DNA of 32,484 bases from Eubacteriales Family XIII. Incertae Sedis bacterium (lineage in GTDB: Bacteria > Bacillota > Clostridia > Peptostreptococcales > Anaerovoracaceae), in assembly GCA_031274195.1 (NCBI GenBank), contig JAISQM010000146.1, positions 1-32,484 of the forward strand, read 5' to 3'. Position 1 is the stretch's first letter. Each line of letters starts with the position of its first letter. Positions 27,572 to 27,744 of the stretch are shown piece after piece. A program made the position numbers and the translations under genes. The notes below the pieces were generated by a model that worked only from the letters and a program-made list of their open reading frames with translations, made no database searches and was not told the origin of the DNA.

Positions 27572-27744
27572 TATATATCAACGGGAGGGAGCCGCCGGAG
27601 GAGTACGGCGGTGATGGGAGACATAGCCCCTGGACTCCCTCCCGGATGATAACTTGTTATATATATCAACGGGCGGGAGCCGCCGAATCAGTACGGCGGT
27701 GATGGGAGACATAGCCCCTGGACTCCCACCCGATTGATAACTTT
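27572..27744 (-). ncRNA. Tandem pair of 88-bp-period structured elements (candidate three-way-junction RNA or palindromic repeat)
   Basis: Two copies share a 38-bp identical core AGTACGGCGGTGATGGGAGACATAGCCCCTGGACTCCC (27602-27639, 27690-27727); P1 10 bp, P2, P3 6 bp on the minus strand; one P1 pair changes A-U to U-G on the minus strand. Confidence 0.6.

What the first reader, a model, noticed from the sequence alone, without database searches (positions are those of the whole stretch)
27572..27744. Tandem 88-bp structured elements with a pairing-preserving change: candidate new phage RNA motif or palindromic repeat
On the minus strand (direction of the early operon) each unit reads GUUAUCA-nn-CGGGNGGGAG-UCCA-GGGGCUAUGUCUCCC-AUCA-CCGCCG-UACUnnnn-CGGCGG-CUCCCNCCCG-U-UGAUA. 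That folds as a three-way junction: P1 of 10 bp, a short P2 (GGGG/UCCC), and P3 (CCGCCG/CGGCGG, 8-nt loop). Junction strands UCCA and AUCA are identical in both copies. The P1 middle pair is A-U in copy 1 and U-G in copy 2, so both positions changed and pairing is kept on the minus strand but would be C-A on the plus strand. P2's closing G-U also pairs only on the minus strand. Loop halves differ (CCUC vs GAUU). The region is largely non-coding and lies before gene 27092-27508. Alternatives are a REP/MITE-like palindrome or replication-origin hairpins.
Basis: partly seen in the sequence, partly recalled or inferred. Interest (0 to 1): 0.78.

Follow-up and report, generated by a model that had tools for sequence, protein, structure and literature searches.

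The report
Tandem hairpin repeat in prophage operon
A poorly sampled prophage carries two side-by-side copies of an 84-base self-pairing sequence at the end of a tiny gene in its early operon; the repeat and fold are real, but no relative was found anywhere, so a new RNA class is unproven and a local mRNA hairpin or DNA palindrome is as likely.

Summary
Two 84-bp direct repeats (27572-27655 and 27660-27743, period 88, 92% identical) each fold into the described three-way junction. Copy 2 is the most stable segment, corrected for G+C, on the minus strand of the window. Of the seven differences, five are unpaired and two fall in one P1 pair (A-U to U-G); random sets of seven changes keep all 25 pairs only about 1% of the time. 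The plus strand folds about as well (copy 1 better than minus), so strand-specific RNA rests on one pair. The region is not simply non-coding: copy 2 lies inside a predicted 47-codon ORF (27666-27809, minus) with an AGGAGG ribosome site and ATGA coupling to the preceding HTH gene. No Rfam family matches. No homologue was found in the rest of the host MAG, 354 family genomes, about 400 order genomes, phages, plasmids, viral, metagenome or genome collections, so covariation cannot be tested. Best reading, at modest confidence: a duplicated intercistronic hairpin acting in cis on early mRNA. Rivals are a MITE/REP-like palindrome and a DNA site, for example an origin for the phage's HUH Rep. Interest is low to moderate.

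The parts
27660..27743 (-). copy 2 of the structured repeat (three-way junction), overlapping the 3' end of the 47-aa ORF
27572..27655 (-). copy 1 of the structured repeat, intergenic before gene 27092-27508
27666..27809 (-). 47-aa ORF with AGGAGG ribosome site and ATGA overlap with the HTH gene, stop codon at the base of the copy-2 helix; no homologues
27542..27565 (-). two exact tandem copies of the 12-mer GATATAAATCCG in the leader of gene 27092-27508
27806..28036 (-). HTH_17 / excisionase-like small DNA-binding protein, upstream gene of the operon
27092..27508 (-). downstream gene, 138 aa, related to phrog_24368 (unknown function)
20072..20959 (-). HUH-type replication initiator (PF23343, phrog_3584), candidate user of an origin

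Best explanation
It is a duplicated, very stable GC-rich hairpin element in the early, lysogeny-proximal operon of a prophage, lying between two small cistrons. Shown by sequence and computation: the tandem repeat, the three-way-junction fold, structure-compatible divergence of the copies, copy 2 overlapping the end of a 47-codon ORF whose stop codon sits at the base of the helix, and no intrinsic-terminator U-run. Inferred: the minus-strand transcript carries both hairpins. A ribosome finishing the 47-codon ORF opens copy 2, while copy 1 stays folded as a barrier that stabilises or processes the mRNA and insulates expression of the next gene, whose ribosome site lies about 50 nt beyond copy 1 and is predicted mostly unpaired.
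For: Strong minus-strand fold, z -5.3 and -4.6; rank 1 on the minus strand of the window by G+C-corrected stability. Seven differences keep all 25 pairs, about 1% by chance. Co-directional genes on both sides, and the 47-aa ORF with AGGAGG and ATGA coupling into the repeat. No terminator-like site there. The downstream ribosome site is not clearly sequestered: 4 of 6 bases have pairing probability of 0.05 or less, the other two about 0.9. One P1 change is standard or wobble only on the minus strand.
Against: No transcript data. The plus strand folds as well. No homologue is available to show covariation. Tandem palindromes also fit a DNA-level role. The copies' differences are too few to separate structural constraint from coding or chance; three of the four changes inside the short frame MSPITAVL(I/L)RRLPPVDI are at third codon positions.
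Confidence: 0.38

Rival explanations
1. A MITE- or REP-like palindromic DNA element (A+T-rich terminal inverted repeats around a GC-rich core) that landed in the small-cargo slot after the HTH gene and was tandemly duplicated.
For: The inverted-repeat ends (TATATATCAAC / TTGATAACTT) and the sharp unit edges suit it. The host chromosome carries another dispersed palindromic repeat family of about 80-90 bp, one locus of it tandem with period 92. A relative carries variable small genes at this position.
Against: No dispersed copy in the MAG, in 3 congeners, in 354 family genomes or in the public collections. It shares no sequence with the host palindrome family.
Confidence: 0.22
2. A DNA site used in single-stranded or extruded form, such as the double-strand or single-strand origin for the phage's HUH Rep, or a recombination/excision site for the excisionase-like protein.
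For: The phage encodes an HUH Rep. Paired hairpins lie next to two exact 12-bp repeats and A+T-rich DNA. Both strands fold well, also with DNA parameters.
Against: The Rep gene is about 7 kb away. Twenty regions from prophages with related Reps have no similar element by the model R1. GC skew shows no switch at the element; it changes sign near 29 kb, where gene direction changes.
Confidence: 0.22
3. A translational regulator: in each copy GGGAG lies about 10 nt before an AUG in loop L2, with GGGAG buried in P1, so opening of P1 would expose a start for MSPITAVL(I/L)RRLPPVDI. The element would control a short leader peptide.
For: The sequence GGGAG-UCCAGGGGCU-AUG is identical in both copies. 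In that frame the changes within the peptide are conservative, with only one I/L difference.
Against: The copy-2 frame runs on into copy 1. The peptide was not searched for homologues separately. Third-position bias is 3 of 4 changes, about 0.11 by chance (own arithmetic).
Confidence: 0.08

Closest known systems
Intercistronic stem-loops and REP/BIME sequences of bacterial operons (from general knowledge)
   Same: stable GC-rich palindromes between co-directional genes, sometimes in tandem, able to slow exonucleases
   Different: not dispersed in this genome, no known REP consensus tested, branched three-way junction rather than a simple hairpin
Phage early-leader RNA elements such as HK022 put (from general knowledge)
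   Same: structured RNA in an early phage transcript
   Different: no Rfam match; put-like antitermination not tested; here the element lies within the operon, not at its start
Dispersed palindromic repeat family of the same host genome (e.g. contig C80:19937-20132)
   Same: unit of similar size, A+T-rich inverted ends, GC-rich hairpins, tandem at one locus
   Different: no sequence similarity; about 20 dispersed chromosomal hits against one tandem pair in the prophage
Rolling-circle origins of HUH Rep replicons (from general knowledge)
   Same: hairpins next to short repeats in a phage with an HUH Rep
   Different: far from the Rep gene, no nick motif identified, not shared with relatives of the Rep

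Membership tests
Any Rfam RNA family | match at or above the family gathering score | tested here: not met
   only a tRNA in the window; weak chance matches of at most 20 bits at the element
Conserved structured RNA motif | compensatory changes across several homologues | not testable with these tools
   no homologues found; only one changed pair between two copies
Conserved structured RNA motif | fold more stable than shuffled sequence | tested here: met
   0 of 200 shuffles on the minus strand for both copies
REP/MITE-like mobile palindrome | multiple dispersed copies in the genome or in relatives | tested here: not met
   only the tandem pair
REP/MITE-like mobile palindrome | inverted ends with target-site duplication | tested here: inconclusive
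   inverted ends present; no empty site available for comparison
Intrinsic terminator | GC-rich hairpin followed by a T-run | tested here: not met
   no terminator-like site at the element
HUH Rep origin | element shared by replicons with related Rep proteins | tested here: not met
   model R1 finds nothing in 20 regions around Rep relatives; the relatives searched are distant, at most 46% identical
HUH Rep origin | Rep-dependent nicking | not testable with these tools
   needs biochemistry

The most novel reading that the evidence does not exclude
A previously undescribed phage RNA element: a tandem three-way-junction module with a Shine-Dalgarno sequence buried in P1 and an AUG in loop L2, read through by a coupled upstream ORF, which controls translation within a prophage early operon.
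Probability: 0.1. Interest if true: 0.6.

Novelty: new member of a known kind. Interest (0 to 1): 0.25.

Why it matters
If it acts on RNA, it would be a new cis-regulatory element of a poorly sampled prophage group and a reason to sequence more relatives. As it stands it documents a real but orphan structured repeat whose class cannot be decided from one genome.

Tried and rejected
Rfam at gathering and relaxed thresholds: nothing; HCV_5BSL1 and Termite-leu matches at 19-20 bits are chance. Exact core in viral, metagenome and genome collections: nothing. Gapped core GGAGTCCAGGGG-N4-10-CCCATCA: none in viral contigs; 27 hits in metagenome and genome contigs that lack the surrounding helix and read as unrelated sequence; two of these loci (L027, L035, the same sequence) reach 20-23 bits with the model, against 113 for the window, and I treat them as chance. 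Covariance model in the family and order genomes: only the window. Close phage relatives via Rep, PcfJ, terminase and the 138-aa gene: none close. Structured regions in 20 prophage regions with related Rep: different elements, among them operator-like palindromes and a cluster upstream of an integrase. Integron attC and hammerhead-like cores were compared from memory only and set aside; the Rfam scan also gives no ribozyme match. An intrinsic terminator was rejected. The literature search for put RNA returned no held paper.

Full report
What is there. The window is contig C49 (all 32,484 bases) of a 1.64-Mb draft genome. It begins with a seryl-tRNA-synthetase-like gene and a tRNA-Pro, followed by a prophage whose genes mostly run on the minus strand. 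On the minus strand between an HTH_17/excisionase-like gene (27806-28036) and a 138-aa gene related to phrog_24368 (27092-27508) lie two 84-bp direct repeats, 27660-27743 and 27572-27655, with period 88 and 92% identity. The period is not a multiple of three.

Structure. Energies are -40.8 and -39.3 kcal/mol, z -5.3 and -4.6, 0 of 200 shuffles. Corrected for G+C, copy 2 is the most stable 84-nt segment of the minus strand of the window. The seven differences between the copies spare the structure: five are unpaired and two make one P1 pair, A-U against U-G. Random sets of seven substitutions keep all 25 pairs in about 1% of trials. This is the best evidence that the fold, not just the sequence, has been kept, but it rests on two copies in one genome.

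Strand. The plus strand also folds well (z -4.3 and -4.5; copy 1 -40.5 kcal/mol, better than its minus strand), and DNA parameters give similar values for both strands. The single U-G pair favours the minus strand, but only weakly.

Coding. The region is not simply non-coding. A 47-codon ORF (27666-27809, minus) begins with an ATGA overlap of the HTH gene's stop codon behind AGGAGG, runs through copy 2, and stops at the base of its helix. The protein database holds this ORF as a predicted protein from this contig and nothing similar. In its frame the repeat differences change five residues. In a second frame, which starts at an AUG in loop L2 about 10 nt behind a GGGAG, the peptide MSPITAVL(I/L)RRLPPVDI differs at one conservative residue.

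Relatives. None was found. The element is absent from the rest of the host genome, three congeners, 354 family genomes by BLAST and by covariance model (both counts include the host's own), 401 genomes of the order, likewise, phages and plasmids, and viral, metagenome and genome collections by exact core. Looser patterns gave no convincing match. The phage is itself poorly sampled: its Rep, PcfJ and terminase have no close relatives. Prophages with related Reps (at most 46% identity) do not contain the element; in one of them small cargo genes sit at the same place.

What it most likely does. There is no T-run, so it is not an intrinsic terminator. The start region of the next gene is mostly predicted unpaired, so direct occlusion of that gene is not indicated. 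The commonest role of a stable palindrome between co-directional cistrons is to affect mRNA stability or processing (general knowledge). That is the explanation I commit to, at 0.38. A mobile palindrome (0.22) and a DNA site such as an origin for the HUH Rep (0.22) remain open. Every functional step is inferred.

Verdict. A real, structure-preserving tandem repeat of unknown class, private to one prophage on present data. It is worth a note but is not evidence for a new RNA class.

Noticed in passing
27233-27249 and 27674-27690: A 17-nt stretch of copy 2 (loop L3, P3 and P1 3' strands) recurs with one mismatch inside the downstream gene, in a frame encoding LIRRL in both; 0 of 300 shuffles of the element reach this match.
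   Followed up: partly
18302-18324 and 18407-18429: A perfect 23-bp inverted repeat whose arms are themselves palindromic (AAACGTTGAAATTCCAACGTTTA), between the small terminase and HNH genes; operator- or packaging-site-like.
   Followed up: no
host genome G000, e.g. contig C80:19937-20132: A dispersed palindromic repeat family (TTATGATATAATAGCCGC...), about 20 hits; the C80 locus is a tandem pair with period 92, directly upstream of an ftsZ-like gene.
   Followed up: partly
L085:12430-12600 and L086:5026-5200: In two prophages of another genus of the family, a cluster of nested palindromes and hairpins upstream of the integrase gene gives the strongest folds of all regions scanned.
   Followed up: partly
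1500-32484: The prophage seems to begin near tRNA-Pro (1335-1412), but I found no direct repeat for a right end and recognised no integrase in the contig; it probably continues beyond the contig end.
   Followed up: partly
20072-20959: A tailed prophage with an HUH rolling-circle-type Rep; the Rep or relatives of it occur in 48 of 354 genomes of the family.
   Followed up: partly
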